This document shows positions 31,487-50,041 of a stretch of DNA of 64,000 bases, piece by piece. Position 1 is the first letter of the stretch. Every line of letters starts with the position of its first letter. The position numbers and the translations under genes are program-made. The notes beneath the pieces were generated by a model that saw only the letters and a list, made by a program, of their open reading frames with translations, was not told the origin of the DNA and did no database searches. The DNA is from Arthrobacter sp. DNA4 (GTDB lineage Bacteria; Actinomycetota; Actinomycetes; Actinomycetales; Micrococcaceae), in contig NZ_CP101466.1 of NCBI RefSeq assembly GCF_024362385.1, positions 1,674,001 to 1,738,000 of the forward strand, read 5' to 3'.

Positions 31487-31565
<79 letters not shown>

Positions 31566-31669: not shown

Positions 31670-32857
31670 TCAGAACCCCATGGCGTCGGACAGCTTGGAG
31701 ATCGCGGCGCGTGCACTGTCATCGGATGTGTGCCCGTAGATGTCGCCGGTGATGCTCACCGATTGGTGCCCCAGCAGGTCCGACACGGCTTTGATGTTCA
31801 CTCCTGCTTCCAGCATGGCCGTTGCCGCGGAGTGACGCAGTGAGTGAACGCCCACGTCCTTGAGCCCGGCCCGTGCCGCCGCCGTCTGCACCACCCGGTA
31901 AAGATTTCGCGGGTCCACCGGCTGGCCGCTCTCCGTGGTGAAGACGTGCCCGGTGTCCATCCAAGCACTCCCTGCATGCAGCCGCTCCGCGACCTGGGCC
32001 TTCCGCTGCGCCGTCAGCAGGACAGCTGTGACGGGGGAGACCGGCAGCACCCGGCGGGACCGATCCGTCTTGGGTTCCGTCACCGTGAGCTTTCCGCCGA
32101 TACGGGAGAGGGTGCCCCTGACCTTTAGTATTCCGGCATCGAAGTCAACGTCTGCCCAGCGCAATGCCAAGCACTCACCACGGCGGATCCCGGTTGCGGC
32201 TATCACTACGAGGGCACTGTGGTACCGGGAGGACTCGGCAGCACTCAGGAGACGGCGAACCTCGGCGGGGGACAGATGCCGCGCTTCGGTGCGCTCGACC
32301 CCGGGCCGACGTATCACCGCCGCTGGATTACGGGCAAGCAGTCCATCCCGGACAGCGCCGTCCAGGGCGGAGCGCAGGACCGTGTACGTGGTCCGGATGG
32401 TCGAGTCGGAGAGTGCGCGGACTTCTACTTCGCCGCCGTCCTCCGCCCGCGCTTGGCGTGTCCTGGCCCGGAGGCGGAGGACCAACGCTTCGATGTCTGA
32501 CGGCTTGAGCTTGTCCAGCCTCAGAGCGCCGAAGGGCTCTGGCATCAAGTGCTTGGCCGCGAGGGTCCGGTATAGCGAACGGGTGGACTCCTTGCGGTCG
32601 CTCGCGGCCAGCGTCGTCGCGGCCCAGTGCTGGAGCCACTGGGAAACCGTGGCTTTCGAGTCGCTGACCGGTCGGCCTTCCTCGAGCCGGTCGCTGGCTT
32701 CGCGTAGCCTTGTCCGAACCTCGGCGCGGGTCTTGCCGTAGAACACTTTCCTGCTGTTCTTCCCCGTCGCAGGGTCCTCGTAACTGAGTGCCCCGACATA
32801 GCGTCCGTCAGATTCGCGCTTGTATATAGAACCTTCGCCGTTTGCCCGTTTGCTCAT
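31670..32857 (-). CDS. int: Phage-type tyrosine recombinase (integrase)
   Basis: Predicted 395 aa. N-terminal arm-binding (AP2-like) domain, residues 1-60 (GEGSIYKRESDGRYVGALSY); SAM-like core-binding domain about 70-175; catalytic domain with Arg in TGIRRGECLALRW, H338 and R341 in HSLRHS, H364 in LLGHQS and Y374 in TGDIYGH. All catalytic residues present, so probably active. It faces the tRNA-Pro attL, the usual arrangement. The start overlaps the upstream gene's stop (ATGA), so integrase depends on translation of that gene. Confidence 0.95.
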   Translation of the reverse strand: MSKRANGEGSIYKRESDGRYVGALSYEDPATGKNSRKVFYGKTRAEVRTRLREASDRLEEGRPVSDSKATVSQWLQHWAATTLAASDRKESTRSLYRTLAAKHLMPEPFGALRLDKLKPSDIEALVLRLRARTRQARAEDGGEVEVRALSDSTIRTTYTVLRSALDGAVRDGLLARNPAAVIRRPGVERTEARHLSPAEVRRLLSAAESSRYHSALVVIAATGIRRGECLALRWADVDFDAGILKVRGTLSRIGGKLTVTEPKTDRSRRVLPVSPVTAVLLTAQRKAQVAERLHAGSAWMDTGHVFTTESGQPVDPRNLYRVVQTAAARAGLKDVGVHSLRHSAATAMLEAGVNIKAVSDLLGHQSVSITGDIYGHTSDDSARAAISKLSDAMGF

Positions 32858-33839: not shown

Positions 33840-34087
33840 GGGCCGCACTTGAACCGTCCATGGGTCTCCGCCGCCGCCAGGCTTCGCTGCGTTGTCCGCC
33901 TATGGACTGTGGACGCCGGGACCCTATGGACACCTACCCGGAGGGTTTCCTGGCGGCCCCGGTAGTGATGGGCCTGGAACCGTGGGAATTGCTGGCCGAA
34001 GCCAAGCGCCTTGAGCGGGCCGGGTGGTGGCCGTGGGAAATCCGGACGCGGCTCGGTCTGACCTGGGGCGGGGGTGGCAGGCCATGA
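33836..34087 (+). CDS. Small element protein, unknown
   Basis: Predicted 83 aa from GTG 33836, overlapping the excisionase stop (GTGA) and the next gene's ATG (ATGA). The recognisable part is the C-terminal half, a Trp-rich helical segment (LEPWELLAEAKRLERAGWWP, WEIRTRLGLTW), perhaps a small DNA-binding or adaptor helix. ATG 33926 could be an alternative start (MDTYPEGFLAAP). No family recognised; coupling on both sides argues that it is real. Confidence 0.6.
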   Translation: MRAALEPSMGLRRRQASLRCPPMDCGRRDPMDTYPEGFLAAPVVMGLEPWELLAEAKRLERAGWWPWEIRTRLGLTWGGGGRP

Positions 34088-35502
34088 GGGACCTGTTCGC
34101 GGCGTTGACGGATTCGGAGTGGGGCCAAGCCGTTACCCCTGTTACCGCTGTTGCCGATTACGACACCAGTGGGCGGGCGGTTCATGCCGTGCTGCTGGAC
34201 GACGTCCAACGGTTCCTTGAGCGGTTCATTGCTTACCCGTCGCCCGAAGCGGCGACCGCCCACGCGCTGTGGATCGCCCACGCCCACCTGATCGAGGCGT
34301 TCGAGAACACGCCGCGGCTGGCGTTCCTGTCACCGGAACCCGGCAGCGGCAAGAGCAGATGCATGGAACTGACGGAGGCATTGGTGCCGCGCCCGGTGCT
34401 GTCCGTGAACGCAACGGTTGCGTATATCTTCCGCAAGATCAGCGACGAGGCCGGAAAGCCGACCCTGCTTATGGACGAAATCGACGCCGTGTTCAGCGGC
34501 GGGAAGTCCGAGAACAACGAGGACTTGCGCGGGCTGCTGAATTCCGGCTACCGAAAGGGCGCGACCGCCGGGCGTGCCGCCATACGCGGCAAGGAAATAG
34601 TCACGCAGGAATGGCCGTCGTTCTCCGCTGTGGCGCTGGCTGGCTTGAATCAGCTACCGGACACACTCATGACGCGCTCAATCGTTATTCCCATGAAGCG
34701 CCGGCGGCAGGGGCAGCGAGTGGAACCGTACCGCCGCCGGGTCAACGGCCCGGAGGCCGCGGGACTGCTTGACCGGCTGGCGGAATTCGCCACCGAAGTC
34801 CGCGCCGAAGTTACCGACGTGTTCCCAGACCTTCCGGAGGGCATCGAAGACCGGGATGCCGATATCTGGGAACCGCTGCTCGCTATCGCGGACGCCGCCG
34901 GCGGTCACTGGCCGGACACAGCACGAGCCGCCGCCGTCGTCATGGTTACCAAGTCCAAAGACAAACCGGCCACCCTGGGTATTCGGCTGCTGACCGACAT
35001 TCGGACCGTCCTGGGCGACCGGGACCGCATTACTACGGCCGGACTCCTTGACGCGCTGCACGGGCTGGAAAACAGCCCATGGGGCAACATCAAGGGCGAA
35101 CCCATCGACTCCCGGTTCCTGGCGCGGACCCTGGGCAAGTACGAGATACCGACGAACAACACGATCCGGACGGAAGCCGGAACGGCCAAGGGCTACCGGC
35201 GGCACGATTTCGCGGACGCTTTTGACAGGTATCTGCCCCCTGTTACCTCTGTTACCGATCCCGGGACGGACGGAAGGGAAGAATATGGCCAGCGTTACCG
35301 GAATGACCAAAACAACACACACCTTGACTCAGTCATTCTCAATAGTGTGGGTTTCATTCTCAATAATGAACCTGCTGACGCTGCCGCGCCCGTCTCCCCG
35401 GAAATCGGTAACAGCGGTAACAGCAGTAACAGTGAGCGGTGCCTGAAGCACGGTACTCCAGCTCACAAGGGCATGTGCGGGCGCTGCGACGCGGGCGCGT
35501 GA
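34084..35502 (+). CDS. DUF3631-type P-loop ATPase (element replication protein)
   Basis: Predicted 472 aa from ATG 34084 (ATGA overlap); 34024 would add 20 residues inside the previous gene. Walker A is SPEPGSGKSRCMELTEAL (about residues 82-90) and Walker B is TLLMDEIDAVFSGG, followed by RGLLNSGYRKGATAGRA and an arginine in DTLMTRSIVIPMKRRRQG. This is the ATPase core seen in DUF3631 proteins of actinobacterial prophages and plasmids, often fused to primase domains; no primase motif is seen here. The low-complexity C-terminus ends in a CxxC-type segment (HGTPAHKGMCGRCDAGA). Likely role is element replication, by family and context. Confidence 0.8.
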   Translation: MRDLFAALTDSEWGQAVTPVTAVADYDTSGRAVHAVLLDDVQRFLERFIAYPSPEAATAHALWIAHAHLIEAFENTPRLAFLSPEPGSGKSRCMELTEALVPRPVLSVNATVAYIFRKISDEAGKPTLLMDEIDAVFSGGKSENNEDLRGLLNSGYRKGATAGRAAIRGKEIVTQEWPSFSAVALAGLNQLPDTLMTRSIVIPMKRRRQGQRVEPYRRRVNGPEAAGLLDRLAEFATEVRAEVTDVFPDLPEGIEDRDADIWEPLLAIADAAGGHWPDTARAAAVVMVTKSKDKPATLGIRLLTDIRTVLGDRDRITTAGLLDALHGLENSPWGNIKGEPIDSRFLARTLGKYEIPTNNTIRTEAGTAKGYRRHDFADAFDRYLPPVTSVTDPGTDGREEYGQRYRNDQNNTHLDSVILNSVGFILNNEPADAAAPVSPEIGNSGNSSNSERCLKHGTPAHKGMCGRCDAGA

Positions 35503-35675: not shown

Positions 35676-35881
35676 TCCACGCAAGAGATCTTCGGGGTCA
35701 ACGTCATAACGCCGAGGGGGTACGGGGCGGGGTATCTGCCAGGGATGAGGAAGGTGCCGGGGAGGGGGCGTCCAAATCGCTAGAACTTCTGCAAAGGGAC
35801 CCCTTTGCCAGCAGTAGTTCATATCCCCCCGAAAATTTTTGCCCACCCAACCGAGCTTGAGATTGCAAGGAGAAGAAACTT

Positions 35882-36193: not shown

Positions 36194-36330
36194 GCACCAA
36201 TACAGACAAAGTTAGCGAGCATCGCCGAGGCTGTGATTGCTGCGCGTTGGTGCTGGCCGAACTTGAGGCGCTCCGATACGAAGTGGGGCAGCTCACGGGG
36301 CTTATTGTGATCGGGAGCATTGGCAGCTAG
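36190..36330 (+). CDS. Very short coupled ORF, unknown
   Basis: Predicted 46 aa, starting on the previous gene's stop (ATGA). Sequence contains a Cys cluster, HRRGCDCCALVLAELEAL, then a hydrophobic end (LTGLIVIGSIGS). Tight coupling is the only support; it may be non-coding. Confidence 0.35.
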   Translation: MSTNTDKVSEHRRGCDCCALVLAELEALRYEVGQLTGLIVIGSIGS

Positions 36331-36483
36331 CACGTGTGTAGGGTGTCGCACCTCCTAGCAGGCTGCTGAGGAGGAGTTTCCGAAGGCGGCAATCTTGCAA
36401 CCCGGCGCACCAGGTAACGGAGGCCGAGACCGACAGGATATAAACGTCAGGGTGCACTGCAACAACGCCGAAGGAAGAATCAA

Positions 36484-37035: not shown

Positions 37036-37216
37036 TCCACGCTTCCCTCGCGACGACGCCGGTAGTCGTCCAGCTTGTACTCGCTCGTAATGCAAGCACG
37101 TTCTGCCCGACTGCGAGGGCATTGGGACCTTCGTCGCCGTTCGAGTAGGGCCGAGGAGCCGCGTAACCCGGGTCTATTGTCCATCCAAGATGGTCGCAGG
37201 TCGCTAACGTGGATTT

Positions 37217-38050
37217 GTGAAACTAACAGAGGCAACCCGCGAACCAAAACGCAAGACAGCCCGTGCCAGGAAGCTCTTTCAAGAAGCAGAAGCTGAACTT
37301 GATGCGTGGTCCTCAGCGAACCCGATCGTCGCCCGGCTCGTGCCGCACGATAGCCGAATGAAGATCGACATTGTCGTAGAGGCGGGCACAGAGCCACCCC
37401 TAGATGCCGTTGCCCTAACAGTTGGCGACGCGGTCCACAATCTTAGATCCGCTTTGGACAACTTGGCATGGACGCTGGCTCACCTGCCGGGCCTCCCAAA
37501 AAACCCAAAGAGTATTTATTTTCCTGTTTGTGAAAAGCTCAGCGCATGGGACAAAGCCACCAAGGATTTGGCATCAATCCCTAAACCGATTTTGGAAAGA
37601 GTTAAGACACTTCAGCCGTTCACCTTTCCCAAGAACGAAGAGTGCTTTCTTTGGCAACTCCACAAATTGGACATCGCTGACAAGCACCGGTCGTACTTGT
37701 CGGCTCTGGCACAGTGGCAAGGGTCCGACATAGAAGGCCTAGCGCTAGATGTCGAAGCCGATACCACTGTCCGGACTTTAGCGGCGAATCCCCGGCTAAG
37801 CACGATGAGGAATCAAGTAATCGGTTCAATTGAGCTTTCCAAGCCGTATCACAATCAGACTCCGATCCGGGCGACCGTTGGTGTGGATACCCTCTTCGTG
37901 GTTACCTACGAAGAAGGCGGACCAGCCTTCTCCGTAGGCGACATGGCCAAGTCCTTCCCCGCAATCGTAGATGGCATGATTGATTTGGTTTGCCTAGGGG
38001 AAGTAGGGCCGGACCAGATCACGGAAGAGAGACACTTCATCGGTCCTTAG
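37217..38050 (+). CDS. Hypothetical cargo protein with HNLRSALDxLAW motif
   Basis: Predicted 277 aa from GTG 37217. Residues 70-90 read LTVGDAVHNLRSALDNLAWT, a motif I recall in many uncharacterised bacterial accessory proteins, with HKLDIADKHRSYLSAL later. This suggests a helical bundle with conserved His, Asn, Arg and Asp, possibly an enzyme. No name or activity is known to me. The DNA is visibly A/T-richer than the flanks (for example around 37500), so recent transfer is likely. Confidence 0.65.
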   Translation: MKLTEATREPKRKTARARKLFQEAEAELDAWSSANPIVARLVPHDSRMKIDIVVEAGTEPPLDAVALTVGDAVHNLRSALDNLAWTLAHLPGLPKNPKSIYFPVCEKLSAWDKATKDLASIPKPILERVKTLQPFTFPKNEECFLWQLHKLDIADKHRSYLSALAQWQGSDIEGLALDVEADTTVRTLAANPRLSTMRNQVIGSIELSKPYHNQTPIRATVGVDTLFVVTYEEGGPAFSVGDMAKSFPAIVDGMIDLVCLGEVGPDQITEERHFIGP

Positions 38051-38291
38051 CCGGTCGTTGGCCGCATCGATGACCGCAGCCAGGCCACACGCAGAACGAG
38101 CTGACGTAAGATTTGTCCTTCGCCTCTGGGTGCTGCGAAATCAGGAGAACGACGTTTGCCGTTAATGTGTTGAAAGCGGTCAGATCTTTACTCGCCCGAA
38201 TTTAGGTGGCTCATAGCAGTGCCTGCAACAGCTGTGACGGCGGACTGCGAACCAACGCGGCTACACTTTCGGCTATGAGGATGGCATTGGC

Positions 38292-39038
38292 ATGAGCCAA
38301 GATGAAGAACTGCGCTACGTGCGACGCCGCGAGGGGACGCACCGCTCAAGTTCCAGAGAGACCCCCGGCTATGAACGAGACCTCCTCCGCGAAAACGACA
38401 CTGAAAACCTCCTAGGACCGACCGAATCACGTCCAGCAAATATCGACGAGATTATTCGATCGCACACCCCAGCCATGCCGCCCCGCCCATCAATAGCCCA
38501 GCAGATCGCTGGCCAGGTCGCCATTGACATCATGGACGCGCTCAGGCCACATATGATGCATGGTGTCGACGTTGCAGTCGACACCAAGCTCGGCATTCCC
38601 AAACTGGTTAAATGGGCCAAGACCAAGGCGGAGCAACGAAGGAACGAGGTTCGCAACCAAAGCCCATCCGCCGGTGCCCGACTAGACGCGGTGCCCGCAA
38701 AGGCAACTTCCGATATCGACGATGAAACCGGCACTCTCGAGGTACAAATGCCCAGCGTCACCGCCGAACAGTACCAGGCGGCCCTCCACTCGGCTCTTGA
38801 GGCCGAGCAGTACGCGGCACAGATGAGGCAGGTGCTTGCTCAAGTAACAGTTCGTGATGGTGCGGAGAGTGCGACACAGACGGCCTTGGAGGAAACCACT
38901 TCCTCGATCGACGAGGCGACACTCAGGCGTGCAGTGGAGCGGTTGGACAGCAGTCGCTCGGTCGATGGCGAGTTCATGCTTATCAGGAACCAGGACGCTG
39001 ACACGCCGCCACGGACGGTCGACGGGCAGTTGTCATAG
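38292..39038 (+). CDS. Hypothetical cargo protein, mostly disordered
   Basis: Predicted 248 aa. Charged N-terminus (RYVRRREGTHRSSSRETPGY), a helical middle (IAQQIAGQVAIDIMDALRPH, KLVKWAKTKAEQRRNEV) and a coiled-coil-prone C-terminal part (AEQYQAALHSALEAEQYAAQ). No motif or family recognised. It stands alone, over 100 bp from its neighbours on either side. Start ATG 38292 lacks a strong ribosome binding site, so the start is uncertain. Confidence 0.55.
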   Translation: MSQDEELRYVRRREGTHRSSSRETPGYERDLLRENDTENLLGPTESRPANIDEIIRSHTPAMPPRPSIAQQIAGQVAIDIMDALRPHMMHGVDVAVDTKLGIPKLVKWAKTKAEQRRNEVRNQSPSAGARLDAVPAKATSDIDDETGTLEVQMPSVTAEQYQAALHSALEAEQYAAQMRQVLAQVTVRDGAESATQTALEETTSSIDEATLRRAVERLDSSRSVDGEFMLIRNQDADTPPRTVDGQLS

Positions 39039-39165
39039 CCCCCAACTGGGGACTCCAGCGGTCGATGCGCCGACCTCGACTACACCCTGAAATGCGAAGA
39101 GCCATTTATGCTCCATTGCCGCTAGTCTGCATTTGGTATTAGTCGCAAGGAATAGAGGGGGAAGC

Positions 39166-39570
39166 GTGCCATATAACCGCACCGAAGAACAATGGGAACA
39201 GCTCATCGACGCAGCAATGGCAAACCTGACGGCCGTCGCGGAGCAACGAAGCCAGAAGTCCTACTCGAAGCTCAATGCAGAGCTTGCCGACGAAACAGGC
39301 CAACCTGCATTTAACTTCCGCAACCCGGGCGATTTAGCAGGAATGAGCCGCCTGCTGGCAAATGTCGGGGAACGAGGCCTAATTGCACATCCAGATTTCC
39401 TTATCACTTCGTTGGTAACCGGGAAGCATAGCGGCGAGCCTGGCCTCGGTTTCTACAGTCTTGGCGAGAGCGCGGGGCTACTCCAACCCGGCGGCGACAA
39501 GGAACAATTCTGGGTTGAGCAGACAAATGCGGCGCATGCCTATTATTCGCCTAAACGCAACGTTAGGTGA
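39166..39570 (+). CDS. Small protein paired with GIY-YIG-like gene
   Basis: Predicted 134 aa from GTG 39166, which has GAGGGGGAAG directly upstream; GTG 39133 is poorer. Helical N-terminus (TEEQWEQLIDAAMANLTAVA) and a winged-helix-like middle (SYSKLNAELADETGQPAFNF, LAGMSRLLANVGERGLIAHP) followed by a beta part (GFYSLGESAGLL). It may bind DNA or act as antitoxin/immunity partner of the following nuclease-like gene, 93 nt downstream on the same strand; this is inferred from pairing only. Confidence 0.6.
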   Translation: MPYNRTEEQWEQLIDAAMANLTAVAEQRSQKSYSKLNAELADETGQPAFNFRNPGDLAGMSRLLANVGERGLIAHPDFLITSLVTGKHSGEPGLGFYSLGESAGLLQPGGDKEQFWVEQTNAAHAYYSPKRNVR

Positions 39571-39663
39571 TCGGCCAGAGCCAGGCGGCGGGATCAAACA
39601 TCAAGCGTCAGCGCCCCGGGAGGAATATTCCACAAAGCCCCAGGCAAATCCGAAAGAGCTGTC

Positions 39664-40203
39664 ATGACCTTGTTTACCGCCGCTGGACTCCGTGAGGCTG
39701 GATTTGTCGTTCCGATTCCATTTAGGGACATAGAACGGACTGACGTCCTCTCCTACCGCGGCGCTTCCGACGTCCAAGGCGTCTACATCGTGCTGCACGA
39801 ACCCGCACCACAACCAGATTTCCTAGCCCCCGATCACCCCAAACACCAAAAGGTGACGGCGACAGCCTGCTTGGCTGAAAGATGGGTTCCTGAAGCTTCC
39901 GTCCTCTACATAGGCAAAGCCCCACTTCGCGCTCCTAATAAGCGTGGCAAGCGTGCTGGCCTGTGGCAGCGCATCAAAGAGTATCGGGGTTTCGTATACA
40001 GATCCCGAACCAATCACCAAGGTGGGGAGGACCTGCGACGACTGCCTGACCGGGACTCTTTTATGGTCACCTGGAAGGATGTGCCGAACCCCTCCGGAAC
40101 TGAGCGGGATCTCATTCTTGAATTTTCGGGGGTCTACGGTCGAAGGCCGTTCGGCAATCGGGATGATGGCGATGGCCCGCTAGTCGGGGCAAAGTCCTGT
40201 TAG
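39664..40203 (+). CDS. GIY-YIG superfamily nuclease-like protein
   Basis: Predicted 179 aa. The GIY-YIG pattern is readable in order: GVYIVLHE (first strand), VLYIGKAPL (YIG strand), GLWQRIKEY (helix with the conserved Arg), a HQGGEDLRRLPD loop, then ERDLILEFSGVYGRRPFGNR supplying the catalytic Glu and the conserved Asn. Spacing between GVYIV and LYIG is longer than in UvrC or homing enzymes. It could be a restriction-type or repair nuclease. Assignment is by motif reading only. Confidence 0.7.
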   Translation: MTLFTAAGLREAGFVVPIPFRDIERTDVLSYRGASDVQGVYIVLHEPAPQPDFLAPDHPKHQKVTATACLAERWVPEASVLYIGKAPLRAPNKRGKRAGLWQRIKEYRGFVYRSRTNHQGGEDLRRLPDRDSFMVTWKDVPNPSGTERDLILEFSGVYGRRPFGNRDDGDGPLVGAKSC

Positions 40204-40488
40204 GGCGTGTCTCCCAATTCGTGGGTGAGACGCGCGGCACGGTCTCGGTGTGGGTTCGTCCCGCTTCTGGTCGTTGACCAACGCGCAGTGGGAGCGGGAT
40301 TGGTGCCTCTCATTGTCCGTTGTCGGCTGATGAACCGCGGTCAGGAGACCGCTTCGTCTGAGCTGTGAGGGTAATCGGTCGTCGCGGGCGATGTCGGTGG
40401 ATCGGAAAGCGGCCGGATCCTCAGCATGGACCGGATACACTTGCACACGGCTTGCGAAACTTGGTTCAACCCTGACAGAAGGGTGATG
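40204..40488. other. Intergenic stretch before the RM cassette
   Basis: No convincing gene on either strand. Starts with an imperfect hairpin (GTCTCCCA, ATTCG, TGGGTGAGAC; 40208-40230) that may terminate the GIY-YIG gene. The rest presumably holds the promoter of the cassette; no consensus boxes stand out. Confidence 0.4.
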
Positions 40489-40669
40489 ATGCGGGTGTCC
40501 TGCCTGTCCGATGAAGGGCTTGCCGGGCATCTGGGCGTAATCAAGGACACCGTCTAGTCCTGGATTGCTATCAAGGGCGTGCCCTCGCACAAGGTTGGCC
40601 GCGCTGTGGAAGTTCCAAATCAGTGAAGTTGATGAGTGGGTGCGCAGTGACGGTGCGGCCGAAGAATAA
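40489..40669 (+). pseudogene. Decayed HTH (excisionase-family) regulator of the RM cassette
   Basis: From ATG 40489 the frame reads LSDEGLAGHLGVIKDTV and then stops at TAG 40555-40557, where homologues have Tyr. Past the stop it continues SWIAIKGVPSHKVGR, then needs a 1-nt deletion near 40605 to read LWKFQISEVDEWVRSDGAAE before TAA at 40667. Intact proteins of this type are about 65-75 aa single winged helices often found just upstream of restriction or defence operons. Two separate lesions make a sequencing error unlikely. The helicase gene starts 23 nt later. Confidence 0.75.
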
Positions 40670-40692
40670 CCGACTTCGTCGGACAAGGGGGA

Positions 40693-43600
40693 ATGACGGA
40701 CGTGCGGATCATCGACAACGTTAATGAGCTGCTGGGTGATGATCTTAAGGCAGAGATTGTCAGGGGTTCGAGGTTGCGCATCGCGGCGTCCTCCTTCTCA
40801 ATTTTCGCGTTTGAGGCGCTACGCAAAGAGCTGGAGCACCTTGAGGAGTTGCAGTTCATCTTTACCTCGCCCTCTTTCGTAACCGCCAGAGCAACTGACC
40901 GACTCCCGAAGGAACAGCGCGAGTTCTTCATCCCGCATGGCCAGAACGGCGAGTCGACGTTGTACGGCTCAGAGTTTGAGATTCGGCTGCGCAACAAGAT
41001 GACTCAGCGGGCCATCGCGCGCGAGTGCGCTGAGTGGGTGCGGCGAAAGGTGCGGTTCCGGTCGAACAAGACGGCCGCGCCGATGCAGCAGTTCGCCATC
41101 GTTGACGATACGGCCGCATACCTGCCGCTCCAAGGTTTCACATCTGCGGATCTGGGCTACGAGCGCGGCAACGCCGTGTCCAACATGGTCACCAAGCTTG
41201 ACGAAGCGCCGATGACGTCGCAGTACATGCAGCTCTTCGACCAGATCTGGCACAACTCTGCGCAGCTAGAAGACGTGACCGAGGCAGTACACGACCACAT
41301 TGCGTCGGTGTACGCAGAAAACTCACCAGCCCGCGTCTACTTCCTGATCCTGTTCAATTTGTTCTCGGAGTTCCTCGACGACGTTAACGAGGACGTGTTG
41401 CCCAACGACCTGACCGGGTACCAGGACAGTGCGATCTGGAAGAGCCTATACAACTTCCAGCGCGACGCCGCGACGGGCCTGATCAACAAGTTGGAGACCT
41501 ACAACGGCTGCATCCTCGCTGACAGCGTAGGCCTGGGCAAGACGTTCACGGCGCTGGCGGTCATCAAGTACTACGAGCTGCGCAACAAATCCGTGCTCGT
41601 GCTCGCGCCGAAGAAGCTGGCTGAGAACTGGACGAACTACAACGCGAACCTGACCACGAATATCTTTGCGTCCGACCGCTTCAACTATGACGTGCTCGCC
41701 CACACCGACCTCTCGCGCACTCGGGGTGAGTCCCTGGGTATCCCGCTGGACCGCGTGAACTGGGGAAACTATGACCTCGTTGTGATCGACGAGTCGCACA
41801 ATTTTCGCAACGCTGACTTCACCACCGAAAAAGAGACCCGCTACGGGCGACTTATGCGGCAGGTCATCCAGCAGGGTGTGAAGACCAAGGTGCTCATGCT
41901 GTCGGCGACGCCGGTTAACAACCACTTCACCGACCTTCGTAATCAACTCGCGCTGGCCTACGAAGGCAACTCGCAGAATCTGTCGGCCAAACTCAACATC
42001 TCCACGAGCATTGAGGAAGTATTCCGGCAGACTCAGCGCGTGTTTAACGAATGGTCAAAGCTCCCTGCAGAGCAGCGCACTACCGATGCGATCCTCTCCC
42101 GGCTGGACTTCGACTTCTTCGAGCTGCTCGACGCGGTAACCATCGCCCGCTCCCGCAAACAAATTCAAGCGTTCTACGACACATCTGACATAGGGGCGTT
42201 CCCCGAACGGTTACCGCCGGAGTCTGTGCGGTCGCCGCTGACCGACCTAGACGGGGTCCCATCATTCAACGAAATGTTCGAGCGGCTGTCGTCACTAACC
42301 CTCGCGGTGTACGCACCGCTGACGTACGTTTTCCCGAGCAGGATGGGGAAGTACGAGCTGCTCTACGACCCGGCAACAAGCGGAAGCATGGCCAACCTGG
42401 GGCACGCGAACCGTGAGCGTGGCCTCCAGAAGCTCATGACGGTGAACCTACTTAAACGGCTCGAGAGCTCCATCGAGGCATTCCGCATCACCCTTACCAA
42501 GCTCGTAAGCACAGTTGACCAAGGACTCTCTGCGATAGACAATCACGTCGGTTCGGTAGCCGATCTCGCGGCGGCCATCGGTGACCTCGAAGCCGATGAC
42601 GACGATTTTGAGTTCCCCTCCAGCGGCACCGTCGGCACAAAGGTACGGATCGACCTCGCCGACATGGACATCGAATCCTGGCGGCAGGACCTCGCTCACG
42701 ACGCAGGCGTGATTGCCGAACTGTTGGCAGGGGTCAGCGTCGTCACTCCGCAGCATGACCTGAAGCTCCAGGCACTGAAGCAGCGCATCCAAAGCAAGAT
42801 CGCCACCCCAATCAACGTGGGCAACCGCAAGGTGCTCATCTTCTCAGCGTTCGCCGACACCGCCGCTTACCTCTACCGCGAACTCGCCCCGCAACTCGCA
42901 CAGCAGGGCTTGCACACGGCAGTGGTGACCGGCCAGGGCAACCCCCGCACCACGCTCGGCAAGGGCTTCGCCTTCCAGCAAGTGCTCACCCTGTTCTCCC
43001 CAAGGTCGAAGTCCCGCCACCTTGCCATGCCGAGCGAGCAGCGCGACATCGATGTACTCATCGGCACCGACTGCATCAGCGAGGGACAGAACCTCCAAGA
43101 CTGCGACTACTTGGTCAACTACGACATCCACTGGAACCCGGTGCGGATCATCCAGCGGTTCGGTCGCATTGACCGCATCGGCTCTATCAATGCGCAGATC
43201 CAACTTGTGAATTTCTGGCCAGATATCTCCCTAGACGAGTACATAAACCTCAAAGAGCGCGTCGAGAACCGCATGGTCATCGCCGACCTCGCCGCGACCG
43301 CCGACGACAACGTCCTCACCCAGGAGTCAAGTGACACCGCTTTCCGCAAGGAACAGCTTCGCAAGCTTCAGGACGAGGTAATCGAACTGGAAGACGTGCG
43401 CACCGGCGTGTCCATCACCGACCTCGGTCTTAATGAATTCCGCATGGACCTGCTGGGTTACGTCAAGGAGTACGGCGACCTCGCCGCAGCCCCCAAGGGC
43501 CTGCACGCAGTCGTACCCGCACGGCCCGAGATTGGCCTGCGTCCCGGCGTCCTCTTCGCACTCCGCAACGTCAACGCCGACGAGACAATCAACCGCGGAA

Positions 43601-43980
43601 ACCGCCTGCACCCGCACTACCTCATCTACCTCGACAATGACGGCAACGTGATTGCCGACCATACCGAGGTCAAGCACATGCTCGATCTCATCCGTGCGGG
43701 ATCCCGTGTCCATGACAAACCCGTCGCCGACGTCTGCCGGATCTTCAACGCCGCCACCCTCGAGGGCTCCGACATGAGCCGCTACTCTGACCTGCTTACT
43801 GTCGCGATCCGCTCCATGATCGACGTCACCGAGGAACGTGACCTCGACAGCCTGTTCACCGTCGGGCACACGACGGCGCTCACCCAAACCATCGCTGGAC
43901 TCGACGACTTTGAACTCATCGCTTTCCTCGTCATCCTTGACCCGTCCGATCATCCTTCCACTGCGGAGGCGAGACAATGA
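40693..43980 (+). CDS. SNF2-type helicase with PLD-like N-terminal domain
   Basis: Predicted 1095 aa from ATG 40693; GTG 40702 has better spacing to AGGGGGAA. Residues 1-150 resemble the PLD-like N-terminal domain of such helicases (RGSRLRIAASSFSIFAFEAL, LYGSEFEIRLRNKMTQRAIA), but I see no HxKxxxxD motif. Helicase domain 1: Q-motif region FQRDAATGLINKLE, Walker A ADSVGLGKT (276-284), DESH box 366-369, SAT 404-406. Domain 2, about 750-850, has motif V GTDCISEGQNLQ and motif VI WNPVRIIQRFGRIDRIGS. Overlaps the DUF4391 gene by 4 nt. Likely a DNA translocase acting with the RM enzymes; role inferred. Confidence 0.88.
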   Translation: MTDVRIIDNVNELLGDDLKAEIVRGSRLRIAASSFSIFAFEALRKELEHLEELQFIFTSPSFVTARATDRLPKEQREFFIPHGQNGESTLYGSEFEIRLRNKMTQRAIARECAEWVRRKVRFRSNKTAAPMQQFAIVDDTAAYLPLQGFTSADLGYERGNAVSNMVTKLDEAPMTSQYMQLFDQIWHNSAQLEDVTEAVHDHIASVYAENSPARVYFLILFNLFSEFLDDVNEDVLPNDLTGYQDSAIWKSLYNFQRDAATGLINKLETYNGCILADSVGLGKTFTALAVIKYYELRNKSVLVLAPKKLAENWTNYNANLTTNIFASDRFNYDVLAHTDLSRTRGESLGIPLDRVNWGNYDLVVIDESHNFRNADFTTEKETRYGRLMRQVIQQGVKTKVLMLSATPVNNHFTDLRNQLALAYEGNSQNLSAKLNISTSIEEVFRQTQRVFNEWSKLPAEQRTTDAILSRLDFDFFELLDAVTIARSRKQIQAFYDTSDIGAFPERLPPESVRSPLTDLDGVPSFNEMFERLSSLTLAVYAPLTYVFPSRMGKYELLYDPATSGSMANLGHANRERGLQKLMTVNLLKRLESSIEAFRITLTKLVSTVDQGLSAIDNHVGSVADLAAAIGDLEADDDDFEFPSSGTVGTKVRIDLADMDIESWRQDLAHDAGVIAELLAGVSVVTPQHDLKLQALKQRIQSKIATPINVGNRKVLIFSAFADTAAYLYRELAPQLAQQGLHTAVVTGQGNPRTTLGKGFAFQQVLTLFSPRSKSRHLAMPSEQRDIDVLIGTDCISEGQNLQDCDYLVNYDIHWNPVRIIQRFGRIDRIGSINAQIQLVNFWPDISLDEYINLKERVENRMVIADLAATADDNVLTQESSDTAFRKEQLRKLQDEVIELEDVRTGVSITDLGLNEFRMDLLGYVKEYGDLAAAPKGLHAVVPARPEIGLRPGVLFALRNVNADETINRGNRLHPHYLIYLDNDGNVIADHTEVKHMLDLIRAGSRVHDKPVADVCRIFNAATLEGSDMSRYSDLLTVAIRSMIDVTEERDLDSLFTVGHTTALTQTIAGLDDFELIAFLVILDPSDHPSTAEARQ

Positions 43981-44684
43981 CGGCCTCGCTGTATCGCTGG
44001 CCCCAAGCAGCAGCCTTCGGACGCGTGGTTCCCAAGACAAAGTTCTACGAGCACACTACGATCTCTACTCAGGTGCGGGAGAAGTTCACCTCACAGGTAC
44101 AGCGCATCACCTGGGCATACAAGCTCGCCGAGGCGACAGTCCGGCTTCGCGGCGACACGGGGGTGCCCGAGATGCAGGTGTTCGTCATCGATGCCAAGGA
44201 CGACGACGTCAGCGACGAGGTGCTCATCGCCGTCGACAAGGCTGTACAGTTCCCTGTCATCTTCGAGATCAACCGTGGCCTAGACTTCAATGCCCGCACG
44301 CGCATGACCGCCGCGTACAAGAAGCCCGGCGCTGGGGTCATGAAGGTGAGCGCGTACTTCACATCTGAATGGCTGCCCGCGGACTCACCTCGAGTGCCGC
44401 TACCCCCAGCGGTCGACCTGGCTGGTCTCTACGGCAGCCTTCTGACGCCGATGATGCCAATCGCCGTGCGGCTCGGCGAGACTTTGTCTGCGGTCACCGA
44501 CAGGATGGACCAGGTCCGCAAGCTCGACCGCGAGATCGTGAAACTGGAAAAGAGACTTCGAAGCGAACCCCAGCTCAACCGCAAGGTCGAGCTGCGGCGG
44601 CAGCTTCGAATGCAAACTGCCCTACTCAGCGCGCTTACCGACACCGCTACACCCGAAACCGAGGACATCACGTGGAGAAGCTGA
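43977..44684 (+). CDS. DUF4391 domain protein
   Basis: Predicted 235 aa. Resembles DUF4391 proteins: a start of YRWPQAAAFGRVVPKTKFYE, then VREKFTSQVQRITWAYKLAE, EMQVFVIDAKD, KAVQFPVIFEINR and TAAYKKPG. The last 60 residues are a coiled coil (VRKLDREIVKLEKRLRSEPQ). Function unknown; the family is commonly annotated next to helicases and type III methyltransferases. Coupled on both sides (ATGA at the helicase, 13-nt overlap with mod), so it is expected in stoichiometric amounts with them. Confidence 0.85.
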   Translation: MTASLYRWPQAAAFGRVVPKTKFYEHTTISTQVREKFTSQVQRITWAYKLAEATVRLRGDTGVPEMQVFVIDAKDDDVSDEVLIAVDKAVQFPVIFEINRGLDFNARTRMTAAYKKPGAGVMKVSAYFTSEWLPADSPRVPLPPAVDLAGLYGSLLTPMMPIAVRLGETLSAVTDRMDQVRKLDREIVKLEKRLRSEPQLNRKVELRRQLRMQTALLSALTDTATPETEDITWRS

Positions 44685-46747
44685 CGATGCATTCATCCGA
44701 TCTGACCGAACGGAACATCGGCAAGATCGCCGAGTTGTTCCCCACCGTCATCACTGAGGGCGTCGATGACGAGGGCAATCCTACGCGCGCGATCGACTTC
44801 GACCTCCTGCGGCAGGAACTCTCACCCCACATCATTGAGGGGCCGCAGGAGCGGTACCAGCTCGACTGGCCCGAGAAGCGCGAGGCGCTCTTCGCCGCGA
44901 ACGCACCCATCGCGAAAACCCTGCGTCCTGTGCGCGGGGAATCACTCAACTTCGACACCACCCAGAACCTCTTTATCGAGGGTGACAACCTCGACGTGCT
45001 CAAGCTGCTCCAAGAGTCCTACCTCGGCAAGGTCAAGCTAATCTACATCGACCCGCCCTACAACACGGGTTCCGATCTGGTCTACAAGGACGACTTCTCC
45101 GCAACGAAAGCGGAGTATCTCGCGAAGTCCGGGCAGGTTGACGCGGCTGGCAACCGGCTGGTCGTCAACACGGAATCCAACGGACGATTCCACTCAGACT
45201 GGCTCACCATGATCTATCCGCGCCTAAAGCTCGCCCGGAGGCTGTTGACCGATGACGGGCTGATCCTCATGAGCATTGACGATGCAGAGCAGGCATCACT
45301 GCGGCGAGTTGCGGACGAGATTTTCGGGGAGCGCAACTTCATCGCGCAACTGGTGTGGGAAAAAGGGCGCAAGAACGACGCAAAGTTCTTCTCATCGGGT
45401 CACGAGTACGTCCTCGTCTACGCGAAATCGAAGGCTCTATTGAGAGAGCGGGGGACAGAATGGCGCGAGGAAAAGCCTGGTGCGCGTGAGATCTGGGAAG
45501 AGTATGTGCGTCTTCGAGAGATTCACGGCATCGACGACGAGGCAATCGAGAAAGACATCACCAAGTGGTTTGCGGATCTCCCGAAATCCGAACCGGCGAA
45601 GAAGTGGTCCCGGTATCGGCGTATCGACGCGTCGGGACCGTGGCGCGACCGCGACATCTCTTGGCCCGGCGGCGACGGACCACGGTACGACGTCATCCAC
45701 CCAGTCACCGGCCAGCCGTGCAAGGTGCCGGAAGCTGGATGGAGATACTCGACCTCTCAAGAAATGCAGCGACAGATCGCCCTCGGACTTGTGGTCTTCC
45801 GCGAAGACCACACTGAGCCTCCCTTCCGTAAGGCGCATCTGAGGCCAGTCACCGGAGAACTGGACTCCGAGTCGGAAGGCGAATCAGATGATGTAGAACT
45901 TGCCAATCAGGTTCGCGGTTCGTATTTCTACAAGCAATCACAAGCTGCCGTAGGTCACCTTCGCGACTTAATGGGGGCGAAGGTCTTCAATAATCCGAAA
46001 GACCACGTAGAGCTTTCGCGCTTGTTCGAGTACGTCCTGAATGGAGCGGAAGGCATTGTCATGGACTTCTTCGCTGGGTCAGGCTCGACCGCGGAGGCCG
46101 TGTTTGATTTGTGCGCTCGTACCGGCCAGAACTGCCCGGTCATCCTGGTGCAATTGCCTGAACGTCTCGAAGACAATCTCGTGACTGCCAAGGGCTCGGC
46201 GAAGACGACAATCTTGAACGCCATCAAGTACCTCCAACAGCGGCAGAAGCCGACGGTTATCGCGGAACTCACCAAGGTCCGGCTTGAATTGGCGGGTGAA
46301 CGCGTCGTTGCAGAAAAAGCTCATCCAAAGTGGTTGCAAGATGTCGGATATCGTGTCCTGAAGGTTGATTCGTCAAATCTTTTCGACTTGCTTCGCACAC
46401 CTGATGACCTCTTGCAGAGCGAACTTGATCTCTTCACCGACAACGTGAAGCCAGATCGGACGGGCGAGGACTTGTTGTTTCAGGTCTTGCTTGACTGGGG
46501 TCTCGAGCTAACCATGCCGATCGCCGTCGAGCTGATCGGCGAGCAAGAGGTGTTCGTCGTCGAGGACGGCGCGCTCATCGCATGCTTCGCGGAATCGGTC
46601 GGACCCGCACTCGTGCGCGAGATCGCGAGCCGCGCGCCGTTGCGTGCCGTGTTCCGCGACTCTAGCTTCGCTACTGACGCCGAGCGGATTAATGCCCAGC
46701 AAGTCTTTGCTGAGGTCTCGCCCGCGACTGATGTGAAGGCGATCTAA
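44672..46747 (+). CDS. mod: Type III restriction-modification DNA methyltransferase (Mod)
   Basis: Predicted 691 aa from GTG 44672 (MEKLTMHSSDLTERNIGKIA), preceded by GAGGA; ATG 44687 is the alternative. Methyltransferase motif IV is DPPYNTG (about residue 127) and SAM motif I is DFFAGSGST (about 466). This IV-before-I order marks the beta class used by type III Mods, which make N6-methyladenine. The stretch between about 220 and 420 is the likely target-recognition domain. All key residues are intact. Res begins 6 nt after its stop. Recognition sequence cannot be predicted. Confidence 0.93.
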   Translation: MEKLTMHSSDLTERNIGKIAELFPTVITEGVDDEGNPTRAIDFDLLRQELSPHIIEGPQERYQLDWPEKREALFAANAPIAKTLRPVRGESLNFDTTQNLFIEGDNLDVLKLLQESYLGKVKLIYIDPPYNTGSDLVYKDDFSATKAEYLAKSGQVDAAGNRLVVNTESNGRFHSDWLTMIYPRLKLARRLLTDDGLILMSIDDAEQASLRRVADEIFGERNFIAQLVWEKGRKNDAKFFSSGHEYVLVYAKSKALLRERGTEWREEKPGAREIWEEYVRLREIHGIDDEAIEKDITKWFADLPKSEPAKKWSRYRRIDASGPWRDRDISWPGGDGPRYDVIHPVTGQPCKVPEAGWRYSTSQEMQRQIALGLVVFREDHTEPPFRKAHLRPVTGELDSESEGESDDVELANQVRGSYFYKQSQAAVGHLRDLMGAKVFNNPKDHVELSRLFEYVLNGAEGIVMDFFAGSGSTAEAVFDLCARTGQNCPVILVQLPERLEDNLVTAKGSAKTTILNAIKYLQQRQKPTVIAELTKVRLELAGERVVAEKAHPKWLQDVGYRVLKVDSSNLFDLLRTPDDLLQSELDLFTDNVKPDRTGEDLLFQVLLDWGLELTMPIAVELIGEQEVFVVEDGALIACFAESVGPALVREIASRAPLRAVFRDSSFATDAERINAQQVFAEVSPATDVKAI

Positions 46748-46753
46748 CCCCAA

Positions 46754-49700
46754 ATGAAACTTCAGTTCAAGGTTCATCAGTACCAAACGGACGCAGTCGA
46801 CTCGGTGGTCGGATGCTTCGCAGGGCAGCCACGCGATGACGGGGTAAGCTACCGAATTGACCCTGGACGGCAGACGCAGCAGGCACTGACGGAGGATTCG
46901 GGCCTGCGCAACGCCGAGATCGTGCTGAGCCCGACGCAGGTCCTGGCAAATATTCAGGCTGTACAGCGCAGCCGCAATCTGCCCTTGTCTTCTGCGCTCG
47001 TGCCGAGCAAGGCAGGGCCGATCAATCTGGACATCGAGATGGAGACCGGGACGGGCAAGACCTACGTCTACATCAAGACGATCATGGAGCTGAAGAAGCT
47101 TTACGGATGGTCGAAGTTCATCATTGTGGTGCCGAGCGTGGCGATTCGCGAGGGTGTAAAGAAGTCGTTCGACATCACAGCTGAGCATTTCCAACAGATC
47201 TACGGCACCAAGCCTCGCTCGTTTATCTATAACTCCTCGCAGCTGCACGAACTGGAGCGGTTCAGCTCCGACGCCGGCGTCCAGGTGATGATTATCAACA
47301 TCCAGGCGTTCAACGCCGTAAGCAAGGACAACCGGCGCATCTACGACGTGCTCGACGACTTCCAGTCCAGGAAGCCGATCGACGTGATCAGTGCGAATCG
47401 CCCGATCGTTATCATCGATGAGCCGCAGAAGATCGGTGCCGCTAAGTCCTTGGAAGCGCTGTCGCGATTCCGGGCACTGATGGTGCTGCGCTACTCAGCC
47501 ACGCATAAGGTCGAGCACAACAAAGTGCACCGGCTCGATGCAATAGATGCCTACAACCAGAAGCTCGTGAAAAAGATCGCCGTGCGCGGCATCACGGTCA
47601 AGGGTCTGGCGGGGAGCACCGCCTACCTGTATCTGGACGCGATTGAGATCGCGAAGGGGGCAGGGCCCCGTGCGCGGGTTGAGCTGGAGGTGCAGACGAA
47701 GAGCGGCATCAAGCGGCAGGTCAAACGGCTCGACCGCGGAGCTCGGCTCCATGACATCTCCGGTGGGATCGAGGCATACAAGGACCTCATAATCACCGAC
47801 ATCGACGCTAACCGCGACGTCATCGAGCTTAGCGATGGCAGCATCGTGGCCTCCGGGCAGATCACTGCGGACGTGACCGAAGAGGCTAAGCGCCGCATCC
47901 AGATTCGTGAGGTCATCCGCGCTCATCTGGACAAGGAGCGCGAGCTCTTCGCGCAAGGCATCAAGGTGCTATCGCTGTTCTTCATCGACGAGGTGGCCAA
48001 ATACCGCGACTACGAGCGTGGCGACACGCTCGGGGACTATGCACGCGTCTTTGAGGAGGAGTACCGGGCACTGGCGGCCGACGAGCTGAGCCAGCTGGAC
48101 TTCGACATCGAGGCGGAGGCATACCGTCACCATCTGGGATCAATCCTTGTAGAGAAAACGCATCAGGGCTATTTCTCAATCGACAAGAAGACCAAGCAGC
48201 TGGTCGACCCAAGCGTGACCACACGCGGCGAGGATGCGGGCCAGTCCGCGGATGTCGGGGCCTACGACCTGATCCTTAAGAACAAGGAGCGACTGCTCTC
48301 GTTCGACGAGCCCGTGCGGTTTATCTTCAGCCACTCGGCGCTGCGCGAAGGCTGGGACAACCCCAACGTCTTTGTCATGGGCATGCTCAAGAAGAGCGAT
48401 AATACGGTCTCCCGCCGCCAGGAGATCGGTCGCGGCCTGCGACTCGCCGTCGACCAGCACGGCGAGCGGATGGACAACCCCGTCACCGTGCACGATATCA
48501 ACGAGCTGACCGTCGTCACTGACGAGTCCTACACCGACTTCGTGGCGGGCCTACAAAAGGAGATCAGCGAGTCGCTCGCCTCTCGCCCCCGGAAGGCGAG
48601 CGTTAAGTACTTCGTGGGCAAGACGTTCGCCACCGAATCCGGCGAGAGCCTCGTCGAGGAACCACTGGCAGCAGCGCTGTACAAGTACCTCGTCAAGAAT
48701 GACTACATCAACGACGACGACAGCATCTCCGACGCCTACAAGACCGCCCGGGATGCAGGCACTCTCGCCGAGCCGAACTCGGACGTACTCAAGCCGGTTA
48801 TTGACTACCTCTGGCCGCTCATTGACGGGCTTTACATTGGCGTTCCAGTGCCGGATGACGGGCGCAAGCCAAAGCGCATCCCGCTGAACGAACAGAACTT
48901 CGCCAAGAAGGAGTTCAAGGATCTCTGGAACCGCATCAGCCAAAAGGCCGTCTATCAAGTCGAGTTTGAATCGAACGAACTGATCGACAAGTGCGTCGCG
49001 GCGCTTGACGCCCACCTGAAGGTCAACGCGATGCAGTACGTCGTGCAGTCCGGCGAGCAACGTGCCGAGCTCGACTCAGACGATCTGGCGGCCGGGACCG
49101 TTTTTTCTGTTAGCTCGACGAGCACACATGCGGGGACGATCTCGGCGGGGTCCCAAGTCAAGTACGACCTCCTCGGCGAGATCACAGAAAAGACCCAGCT
49201 CACGCGCCGGACGGCCGGTTCGGTCCTGCGAAGGATCAACCCCTCGACGTTTGCGAAATACCGGCAAAACCCCGAGCACTTCATCGCAGAGGCCACGCGG
49301 CTTATTAACGAGCAGAAGGCCACCGTGATCGTTCAGCACCTGACCTACGACACGCTTGCCGAGCGGCACGATACCGCAATCTTTACCGCAAACCAGACTA
49401 AGCAGGACTTCGTCAAGGCGGGGGAGAAGCTGAAGAAGCACATCTACGACTACGTCGTCACCGATTCCAAGGGCGAACGCGCCTTCGTCACGGAGTTGGA
49501 TACCAGCGACGAGGTTGTCGTCTACGCTAAGCTCCCACGCGGCTTCTTCATTCCAACTCCGGTTGGTGACTATAACCCCGACTGGGCCATTGCCTTCCGG
49601 GAAGGCGCAGTTCGGCACGTCTACTTCGTGGCGGAGACCAAGGGCTCGTTGTCCTCGATGCAGCTTCGCGGGGTTGAGGAGGCCAAGATCGAATGCGCCC

Positions 49701-49798
49701 GAAAGTTCTTCGCCGAGCTGAGCCGCAAGCATGATGAGACCGTGACTTATGACGTTGTGACCGACTATAGCCAGCTCATGCAGCTCGTCGGGGGATAG
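46754..49798 (+). CDS. res: Type III restriction endonuclease subunit (Res)
   Basis: Predicted 1014 aa. SF2 helicase core: N-terminal KLQFKVHQYQTDAVDSVVGC, Walker A METGTGKTYVYIK (about 96), motif Ia VVPSVAIREGVKKSF, Walker B as DEPQK (about 222) instead of DEAH, SAT-like YSATHK, and motif VI SRRQEIGRGLRLAVDQHGER. The C-terminus holds a PD-(D/E)XK nuclease: D in VGDYNPDWAI (about 938) and ETK (about 961) in YFVAETKGS. DEPQ and the C-terminal nuclease are typical of type III Res. No truncation seen. Last gene of the cassette. Confidence 0.92.
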   Translation: MKLQFKVHQYQTDAVDSVVGCFAGQPRDDGVSYRIDPGRQTQQALTEDSGLRNAEIVLSPTQVLANIQAVQRSRNLPLSSALVPSKAGPINLDIEMETGTGKTYVYIKTIMELKKLYGWSKFIIVVPSVAIREGVKKSFDITAEHFQQIYGTKPRSFIYNSSQLHELERFSSDAGVQVMIINIQAFNAVSKDNRRIYDVLDDFQSRKPIDVISANRPIVIIDEPQKIGAAKSLEALSRFRALMVLRYSATHKVEHNKVHRLDAIDAYNQKLVKKIAVRGITVKGLAGSTAYLYLDAIEIAKGAGPRARVELEVQTKSGIKRQVKRLDRGARLHDISGGIEAYKDLIITDIDANRDVIELSDGSIVASGQITADVTEEAKRRIQIREVIRAHLDKERELFAQGIKVLSLFFIDEVAKYRDYERGDTLGDYARVFEEEYRALAADELSQLDFDIEAEAYRHHLGSILVEKTHQGYFSIDKKTKQLVDPSVTTRGEDAGQSADVGAYDLILKNKERLLSFDEPVRFIFSHSALREGWDNPNVFVMGMLKKSDNTVSRRQEIGRGLRLAVDQHGERMDNPVTVHDINELTVVTDESYTDFVAGLQKEISESLASRPRKASVKYFVGKTFATESGESLVEEPLAAALYKYLVKNDYINDDDSISDAYKTARDAGTLAEPNSDVLKPVIDYLWPLIDGLYIGVPVPDDGRKPKRIPLNEQNFAKKEFKDLWNRISQKAVYQVEFESNELIDKCVAALDAHLKVNAMQYVVQSGEQRAELDSDDLAAGTVFSVSSTSTHAGTISAGSQVKYDLLGEITEKTQLTRRTAGSVLRRINPSTFAKYRQNPEHFIAEATRLINEQKATVIVQHLTYDTLAERHDTAIFTANQTKQDFVKAGEKLKKHIYDYVVTDSKGERAFVTELDTSDEVVVYAKLPRGFFIPTPVGDYNPDWAIAFREGAVRHVYFVAETKGSLSSMQLRGVEEAKIECARKFFAELSRKHDETVTYDVVTDYSQLMQLVGG

Positions 49799-49868
49799 GG
49801 ATGCGGAGATCGCGCTGCCCTATCGCTGGATCGGTAAGGTAGCGGCACCCCTGCCCTCGGCCCTGAAG

Positions 49869-49890
49869 TGTAGCAACGGGTGTAGCAACG
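49869..49890 (+). repeat. Tandem 11-mer, probable integrase arm site (right)
   Basis: Exact copy, same orientation, of the 22 bp at 31633-31654 (TGTAGCAACGG, TGTAGCAACG). Located 104 bp inside attR, as the left copy is 67 bp inside attL. Confidence 0.75.
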
Positions 49891-49918
49891 CTACTGAAAT
49901 CGCGGGTGTTCGCTAGGG

Positions 49919-49970
49919 TCCGCCACCGTCCGGGTTCCGCGGAATGTTGCGGGTTTTGGACGGTGGCGGA
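49919..49970. repeat. Inverted repeat near attR
   Basis: Perfect 13-bp arms TCCGCCACCGTCC and GGACGGTGGCGGA with a 26-nt loop and no T run. Could end transcription after res or be part of the right attachment complex. Confidence 0.6.
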
Positions 49971-49994
49971 TCTCGGTGAACCCCGTGCCTCTGC

Positions 49995-50041
49995 CTGGGG
50001 GTCAAGGGGTCGCAGGTTCAAATCCTGTCAGCCCGACCAAA
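49995..50041 (+). repeat. attR, 47-bp direct repeat
   Basis: Copy of the tRNA-Pro 3' half including the GGG anticodon, T arm and CCA. The 5' half of a tRNA is absent, so it is the remnant left after integration, not a second tRNA gene. Confidence 0.92.

What the first reader, a model, noticed from the sequence alone, without database searches (positions are those of the whole stretch)
40693..49798. Four-gene helicase-DUF4391-Mod-Res cassette, an extended type III restriction system
Classical type III systems need only Mod and Res. Here a 1095-aa SNF2-type helicase and a DUF4391 protein precede them in one unit: 4-nt overlap, 13-nt overlap, then a 6-nt gap. Two separate SF2 motors (helicase with DESH, Res with DEPQ) in one operon suggest the helicase adds a step such as DNA translocation, phage-specific activation or removal of bound proteins. 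I recall this order from database annotation but know of no experimental description of it as a distinct defence system.
Basis: partly seen in the sequence, partly recalled or inferred. Interest (0 to 1): 0.8.

Follow-up and report, generated by a model that had tools for sequence, protein, structure and literature searches.

The report
Four-gene motor-equipped type III restriction system
A mobile DNA element in a bacterium carries what looks like an anti-virus system in which a standard two-gene DNA-cutting system travels with two further genes, a molecular motor and an adaptor-like protein; this set of four recurs in many phyla, and our searches found no description of it as one system.

Summary
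It is cargo of an 18,476-bp element in tRNA-Pro; four congeners show the empty site.

The genes belong together. Of 80 loci found by helicase alone, 74 have all four recognisable in this order. Of 396 genomes of its phylum 13 have DUF4391 and 12 of these, no others, have HEL. HEL, DUF4391, Res and the Mod ends co-diverge; Mod's middle does not.

New points: HEL begins with a phospholipase-D fold whose catalytic His and Lys are absent in 73 of 73. Five distant cousins keep both; the four with visible neighbours sit near a type IIG-like methyltransferase, not Mod-Res, whose family often carries a DUF4391 domain.

Best reading, inferred: HEL is a non-cutting motor coupled by DUF4391 to Mod-Res. 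Some plasmids lost both genes and keep Mod-Res, so the motor is probably not essential. New variant of a known kind.

The parts
31519..31565 (.). left 47-bp direct repeat (attL), overlaps the 3' end of tRNA-Pro(GGG) 31487-31563
31670..32857 (-). tyrosine integrase of the element
   Evidence: Pfam PF00589 1.5e-28; PHROG integrase
34024..35502 (+). DUF3631 protein of the element (role in replication is recalled, not tested)
   Evidence: PF12307 7.6e-57
40693..43980 (+). HEL: N-terminal degenerate phospholipase-D-like domain (about residues 1-200) plus SNF2-type SF2 motor
43977..44684 (+). DUF4391 protein: alpha/beta part plus C-terminal helical hairpin in the model; proposed adaptor
44672..46747 (+). 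Mod: type III N6-adenine-type methyltransferase; the variable middle (about residues 240-450) is taken as the exchangeable target-recognition part
46754..49798 (+). Res: type III restriction subunit, SF2 domain plus C-terminal PD...ETK endonuclease domain
49995..50041 (.). right 47-bp direct repeat (attR)

Best explanation
A mobile type III restriction-modification system with a built-in motor module. Mod recognises and methylates an asymmetric target, and Res is the ATP-switched nuclease (established for type III enzymes; shown here by homology only). HEL and DUF4391 belong to the constant machine: they co-diverge with Res and the Mod ends, not with the variable middle of Mod (shown; that the middle reads the target is taken from the family). 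HEL has an intact SNF2-type ATPase and a PLD-fold domain without the catalytic His and Lys (shown by sequence and model), so it most likely moves along or remodels DNA rather than cutting it (inferred). DUF4391 most likely couples HEL to the site-bound methyltransferase complex: in the cousin loci a DUF4391-like domain is part of the methyltransferase near HEL (shown at sequence level; coupling inferred). Proposed step: at unmodified sites Mod-Res recruits HEL through DUF4391, and the motor drives complexes together or clears bound proteins, which would make cleavage less dependent on passive sliding between two inverted sites (inferred, untested).
Against: Mod-Res without HEL: L133, L134, L135, L138, L143, of which L134 and L135 keep only a 55- and 58-residue piece with a weak DUF4391 score; Res of L134 stays open with dN 0.011, dS 0.153 against its four-gene relative L124 (the time of loss is unknown). 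HEL is split by IS712 in L147 and in pieces in L148. The Res tree needs 7 changes of the HEL label, at least 5 on well-supported branches. No interaction, activity or phage data. DUF4391 has no confident structural match, its Pfam matches in the cousin methyltransferases are below the curated cut-off, and hhalign is weak (probability 5.5 and 11.7, P 0.007 and 0.0025; nothing with an untrimmed alignment). Whether the DUF4391-bearing type IIG family usually has a HEL neighbour was not tested beyond four loci. Helicase-led searches favour loci that have HEL.
Confidence: 0.5

Rival explanations
1. HEL-DUF4391 is a turnover or safety device: like RapA or Mot1 it strips Mod-Res from DNA after cutting or from half-methylated host DNA, protecting the host rather than strengthening attack.
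For: Closest solved relatives of the HEL profile are RapA; the nuclease residues are lost; HEL tracks Res closely.
Against: Several plasmids keep Mod-Res without HEL and with an open Res, which a needed safety device would hinder. RapA similarity is of the motor core only (48 bits).
Confidence: 0.2
2. HEL-DUF4391 is a second, independent defence layer that shares an operon and is fired by phage DNA without Mod-Res.
For: After C3a139 the best PADLOC families of HEL are DrmD, PLD_Helicase and BrxHI-type helicases; other defence genes sit inside some of these operons.
Against: In the 80 and 76 loci only L245 has HEL and DUF4391, 7 kb of room and no Mod found; HEL co-diverges tightly with Res.
Confidence: 0.12
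3. HEL and DUF4391 are passengers kept by linkage.
For: They can be lost.
Against: Order kept from the window's phylum to an archaeal plasmid; HEL 63% mean identity with its motifs kept.
Confidence: 0.05
4. Plain two-gene type III R-M; the two genes before it are unrelated.
For: Mod and Res look complete.
Against: The co-occurrence counts.
Confidence: 0.03

Closest known systems
Type III restriction-modification (EcoP15I, EcoPI)
   Same: Mod and Res homologous to the EcoP15I subunits; order mod-res.
   Different: EcoP15-type loci have two genes (PMC12707154, passage); here HEL and DUF4391 precede them. The EcoP1-like E. coli plasmid locus inspected (L140) has neither.
SauUSI (type IV, PLD nuclease + SF2 ATPase + TRD; PMC7913695, passages read)
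   Different: HEL lacks HxK; no target-recognition domain was identified in HEL; it sits with a separate methyltransferase and nuclease.
Type IIG-like (Eco57I) methyltransferase near an HKD-SNF2 helicase (loci L230, L232, L233, L244)
   Same: Helicase of the same family (39-41% identical) and a DUF4391-like stretch in the methyltransferase.
   Different: HKD intact; DUF4391-like part within the methyltransferase; no Mod-Res found. I saw no name for this arrangement.
PADLOC model PDLC01075 'C3a139, HKD+Snf2'
   Same: HEL matches at 418 bits over residues 180-1080.
   Different: The match leaves out the PLD part; the label is of one gene, not of the four-gene system.
DISARM DrmD, BREX BrxH, PbeA (PMC10853773, passages read)
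   Same: SNF2 or HKD+SF2 helicases that go with DNA-modifying genes.
   Different: HEL scores far below the curated cut-off (DrmD 152 against 610 bits).

Membership tests
Type III R-M | Mod: N6/N4-type methyltransferase of the type III Mod family | tested here: met
   PF01555 7e-25; PADLOC MTase_III 679 bits; DPPYNTG 73 of 73
Type III R-M | Res: SF2 domain plus C-terminal PD-(D/E)xK-type endonuclease | tested here: met
   PADLOC REase_III 1078 bits; PF19778; exact NPDWAI in 61 and exact FVAETKG in 52 of 73, two rows with a gap there
Type III R-M | ATP-dependent cleavage needing two inverted unmodified sites; one-strand methylation | not testable with these tools
   needs biochemistry and methylome data
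Type III R-M | two-gene locus (usual arrangement, not a definition) | tested here: not met
   four genes in 74 of 80 loci; hence filed as a variant
Active PLD (HKD) nuclease-helicase | PLD fold | tested here: met
   (model mean pLDDT 71)
Active PLD (HKD) nuclease-helicase | HxK catalytic residues | tested here: not met
   no H at 131, no K at 133 in 73 of 73; no PLD family in the Pfam scan of 22 N-termini
DISARM | DrmD over the curated cut-off | tested here: not met
   151.6 bits against 610
DISARM | DrmA, DrmB, DrmC nearby | tested here: inconclusive
   eight element proteins scanned with Pfam only, no such match; no DISARM profile was run on them
PD-(D/E)xK nuclease (DUF4391) | conserved D...(D/E)xK | tested here: inconclusive
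   the K after the E-strand is not conserved in A1; no confident fold match

The most novel reading that the evidence does not exclude
HEL and DUF4391 turn a type III enzyme, whose own ATPase is known only as a switch for passive sliding, into a translocating one: a nuclease-dead SauUSI-like motor recruited through a methyltransferase-docking domain. Such systems would restrict phages whose sites all point the same way (as in T7 against EcoP15I), which classical type III enzymes cannot. The same motor-plus-DUF4391 pair, with a live nuclease and the adaptor built into the methyltransferase, equips type IIG systems.
Probability: 0.3. Interest if true: 0.82.

Novelty: new variant of a known kind. 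Interest (0 to 1): 0.62.

Why it matters
Type III enzymes are the standard case of an SF2 domain used as a switch, not a motor, and their need for two inverted sites lets some phages escape. A widespread clade that carries its own second motor and a candidate adaptor gives a direct test of what limits type III restriction. It also suggests a role for DUF4391, a domain without known function, and shows one motor family beside two kinds of R-M methyltransferase, with the nuclease residues lost in one of them. Annotation that looks only for Mod and Res misses half of the system.

Tried and rejected
1. Is HEL an HKD nuclease, as the PADLOC label says? Fold yes, catalytic residues no. Rejected for the type III-linked family; kept for the cousins.

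2. Is DUF4391 matched to the target motif? Not supported: partial correlation DUF-Mod given HEL and Res is -0.04.

3. DUF4391 by fold search: Foldseek gave no match at E 0.001, and the second look filled with matches to its helical hairpin.

4. LlaFI: recalled as a characterised two-gene Lactococcus type III enzyme; seen only in a reference list and two tables. Its sequence was not compared.

5. hhalign of the untrimmed 83-locus DUF alignment against the IIG part found nothing, so its decoys say nothing either. The first correlation run gave no value for Res; ten loci with a short ORF (L042, L047, L049, L064, L066, L067, L079, L089, L100, L101) were then left out.

6. A scan for more HKD-type cousins gave the same four loci plus one weak hit. 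On plasmids the cousin query returned 92 records; the 15 listed are 40-41% identical. In the window's phylum it returned only the 12 known genomes.

7. DUF4391 alone: G039 (L015) has a PF14335 match with no HEL, Mod or Res found in 20 kb. Left unexplained.
Full report
Observation. Pfam assigns SNF2-rel_dom/Helicase_C, DUF4391, N6_N4_Mtase and ResIII/RE_endonuc. Mod and Res are type III by PADLOC (679 and 1078 bits) and match the two EcoP15I subunits of 4zcf.

Setting. A 47-bp direct repeat (31519-31565 and 49995-50041) begins inside tRNA-Pro and frames 18,476 bp, with a tyrosine integrase near one end and the cassette near the other. G+C is 0.597 inside against 0.66-0.67 outside. In four of 36 congeners searched (G034, G011, G003, G017) matches to the two chromosomal flanks lie 2-4 bases apart, so the site is empty there; the other 32 were not settled. 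Of the other element proteins scanned only the integrase and a DUF3631 protein have a Pfam match over its cut-off, and only the integrase has a firm PHROG match.

Do the four genes belong together? From the helicase: 80 named loci in GTDB genomes, 57-83% identical, from Actinomycetota, Pseudomonadota, Acidobacteriota, Verrucomicrobiota, Bacteroidota and others (581 relatives were found, the best 80 kept). In 74 all four are recognisable in this order and strand; in ten of these at least one gene is short, by contig end or break. L061, L077, L084, L096 and L099 run off their contig; L065 has a Mod fragment followed by an IstB-like frame. From DUF4391 in the window's phylum (Actinomycetota, judged by the named relatives): 13 of 396 genomes. 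The same-sized sample, with the same handles, gives HEL in 12 of 396, all among the 13; G434 is the exception. With G039 there are 13 loci outside the window: HEL adjoins in 11 (one with an internal stop, G355), Mod in 12, Res was found in 10, all four in 9. From Res: 12 of 296 genomes at E 1e-30; six including our own have HEL and DUF4391, six weaker ones show neither, one of these on a 6-kb contig. From Res on plasmids: the 60 rows listed of 171 include 34 with at least 97% coverage. Of these, 31 have HEL within 7.5 kb (25 by listed coordinates, six in fetched loci), in pieces in at least three; L133, L134 and L143 do not. Of the next eight rows (59-80% coverage) five have it. Of the last 18 rows I looked at three (L140, L144, L145) and found none, but L144 is cut at the record start. 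A viral set with more distant helicases (38-83%) gave 45 of 76 complete, 19 with under 7 kb of contig left, 12 incomplete with room. Full sets also occur on an archaeal plasmid, a Listeria plasmid and phage phi1605, and matches to an E. coli plasmid cassette in 10 of 5426 complete E. coli genomes, ten places on plasmids and one on a chromosome.

What varies together. On 73 complete loci (10 of 83 left out for short ORFs) pairwise distances correlate 0.905 for HEL-Res, 0.87 HEL-DUF, 0.825 DUF-Res, 0.754 HEL-Mod, 0.741 Mod-Res, 0.654 DUF-Mod. Along Mod, windows between residues 121 and 570 correlate 0.0-0.27 with HEL and Res, the window 61-150 0.45-0.47, the first 90 and the last 150 residues 0.68-0.86. 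So Mod's middle, where a target-recognition domain is expected, is exchanged while HEL, DUF4391, Res and the Mod ends are inherited together. Two cautions: the most variable part of the middle is 24% identical on average, so poor alignment also lowers its values; and all correlations share a tree and do not prove contact. Close plasmid relatives show the same: L124 and L134 share 97.5% of Res but 63.5% of Mod.

Cousins. Four viral-set loci (L230, L232, L233, L244) with helicases 39-41% identical to ours have no Mod-Res found but a 1200-1570-aa Eco57I/type IIG-like methyltransferase next to HEL or one gene away. A RecF/SMC-like ATPase follows in L244 and L233 and, by eye only, in L232. These four, and L237 whose contig ends, have HGK...GSSNF; none of the other 74 of 79 rows matches that pattern, and their H and K fall exactly on window columns 131 and 133. 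One branch separates the two groups on a 47-row tree (quick method). In these methyltransferases Pfam finds weak DUF4391 matches at one N-terminal place, below the curated cut-off (E 0.028, 8.6e-5, 9.7e-5, 0.001), and 49 of the 120 listed relatives (2,248 found) carry a precomputed PF14335. Profile comparison agrees in register but is weak. I take DUF4391 to be a stand-alone form of a methyltransferase-attached domain that works with this helicase family; the neighbours of the 120 relatives were not examined.

Natural losses. L133, L134, L135, L138 and L143 are plasmid loci with Mod and Res but no HEL; L134 and L135 keep a 55- and 58-residue piece with weak DUF4391 scores (16-27 bits). On the Res tree L134 and L143 are nearly identical to the four-gene L124; the tree of 95 rows needs 7 changes of the HEL label, at least 5 on starred branches, and long branches make parts of it unsure. 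In G434 HEL is reduced to 42 codons in frame while DUF4391, Mod and Res stay open. In L147 an IS21-type element splits HEL. So HEL looks dispensable for keeping Mod-Res.

Accessory slots. In 40 of 74 loci at least one gap exceeds 250 nt, mostly between Mod and Res (35). A Schlafen-AlbA_2 protein lies inside 17 of 74 operons; among the other inserts scanned are RhuM, DinD-like, Fic, GmrSD, SIR2-HerA and AAA genes. None is in the window's cassette.

Mechanism. Type III cutting needs two inverted unmodified sites, and the Res ATPase starts passive sliding (PMC12707154 and PMC4678819, passages); T7 escapes EcoP15I because its sites all point one way. A true motor that is not specific for the target would add what the core lacks. 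That is my preferred reading; turnover or safety (RapA-like) is the main rival. Neither is tested.

Known or new. DUF4391 appears in one paper of the held 5.39 million, seen in the listing only. Searches combining type III restriction with SNF2, HKD, PLD, SauUSI or helicase terms found no description of the four-gene set in titles, abstracts or the passages I read. Most subscription papers, and bioRxiv preprints, are not held, so absence is limited to that library.

Noticed in passing
window 31519-50041: 18.5-kb integrative element in tRNA-Pro with a DUF3631 gene and several proteins without a Pfam or PHROG match.
   Followed up: partly
window 39664-40203: Protein just upstream of the cassette that looks GIY-YIG-like to the eye (recalled motif); no Pfam or PHROG match.
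   Followed up: no
L048, L059, L062, L097 and 13 other loci, mostly between mod and res: Recurrent SLFN_AlbA_2-type gene embedded in the type III operon (17 of 74 loci; Pfam run on two of them).
   Followed up: partly
L095:13981-17038: A SIR2-HerA pair embedded between DUF4391 and mod.
   Followed up: partly
L065:13180-15438: DUF4391 in one open frame with a PADLOC PDC-M61A candidate defence protein; mod downstream is only a fragment.
   Followed up: partly
L244:7270-15816, L233:2046-11054: HKD-SNF2 helicase, type IIG-like methyltransferase with DUF4391-like stretch and RecF/SMC-like ATPase: a possible separate defence system.
   Followed up: partly
L016, L032, L033, L050, L097: Two Mod genes in tandem in one cassette.
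   Followed up: no
L126:8253-17208: Mod-Res near a different SNF2 helicase (66 bits to HEL) without a DUF4391 match.
   Followed up: no
L015 (G039), about 9659-10456: PF14335 match with no helicase, mod or res found nearby.
   Followed up: no
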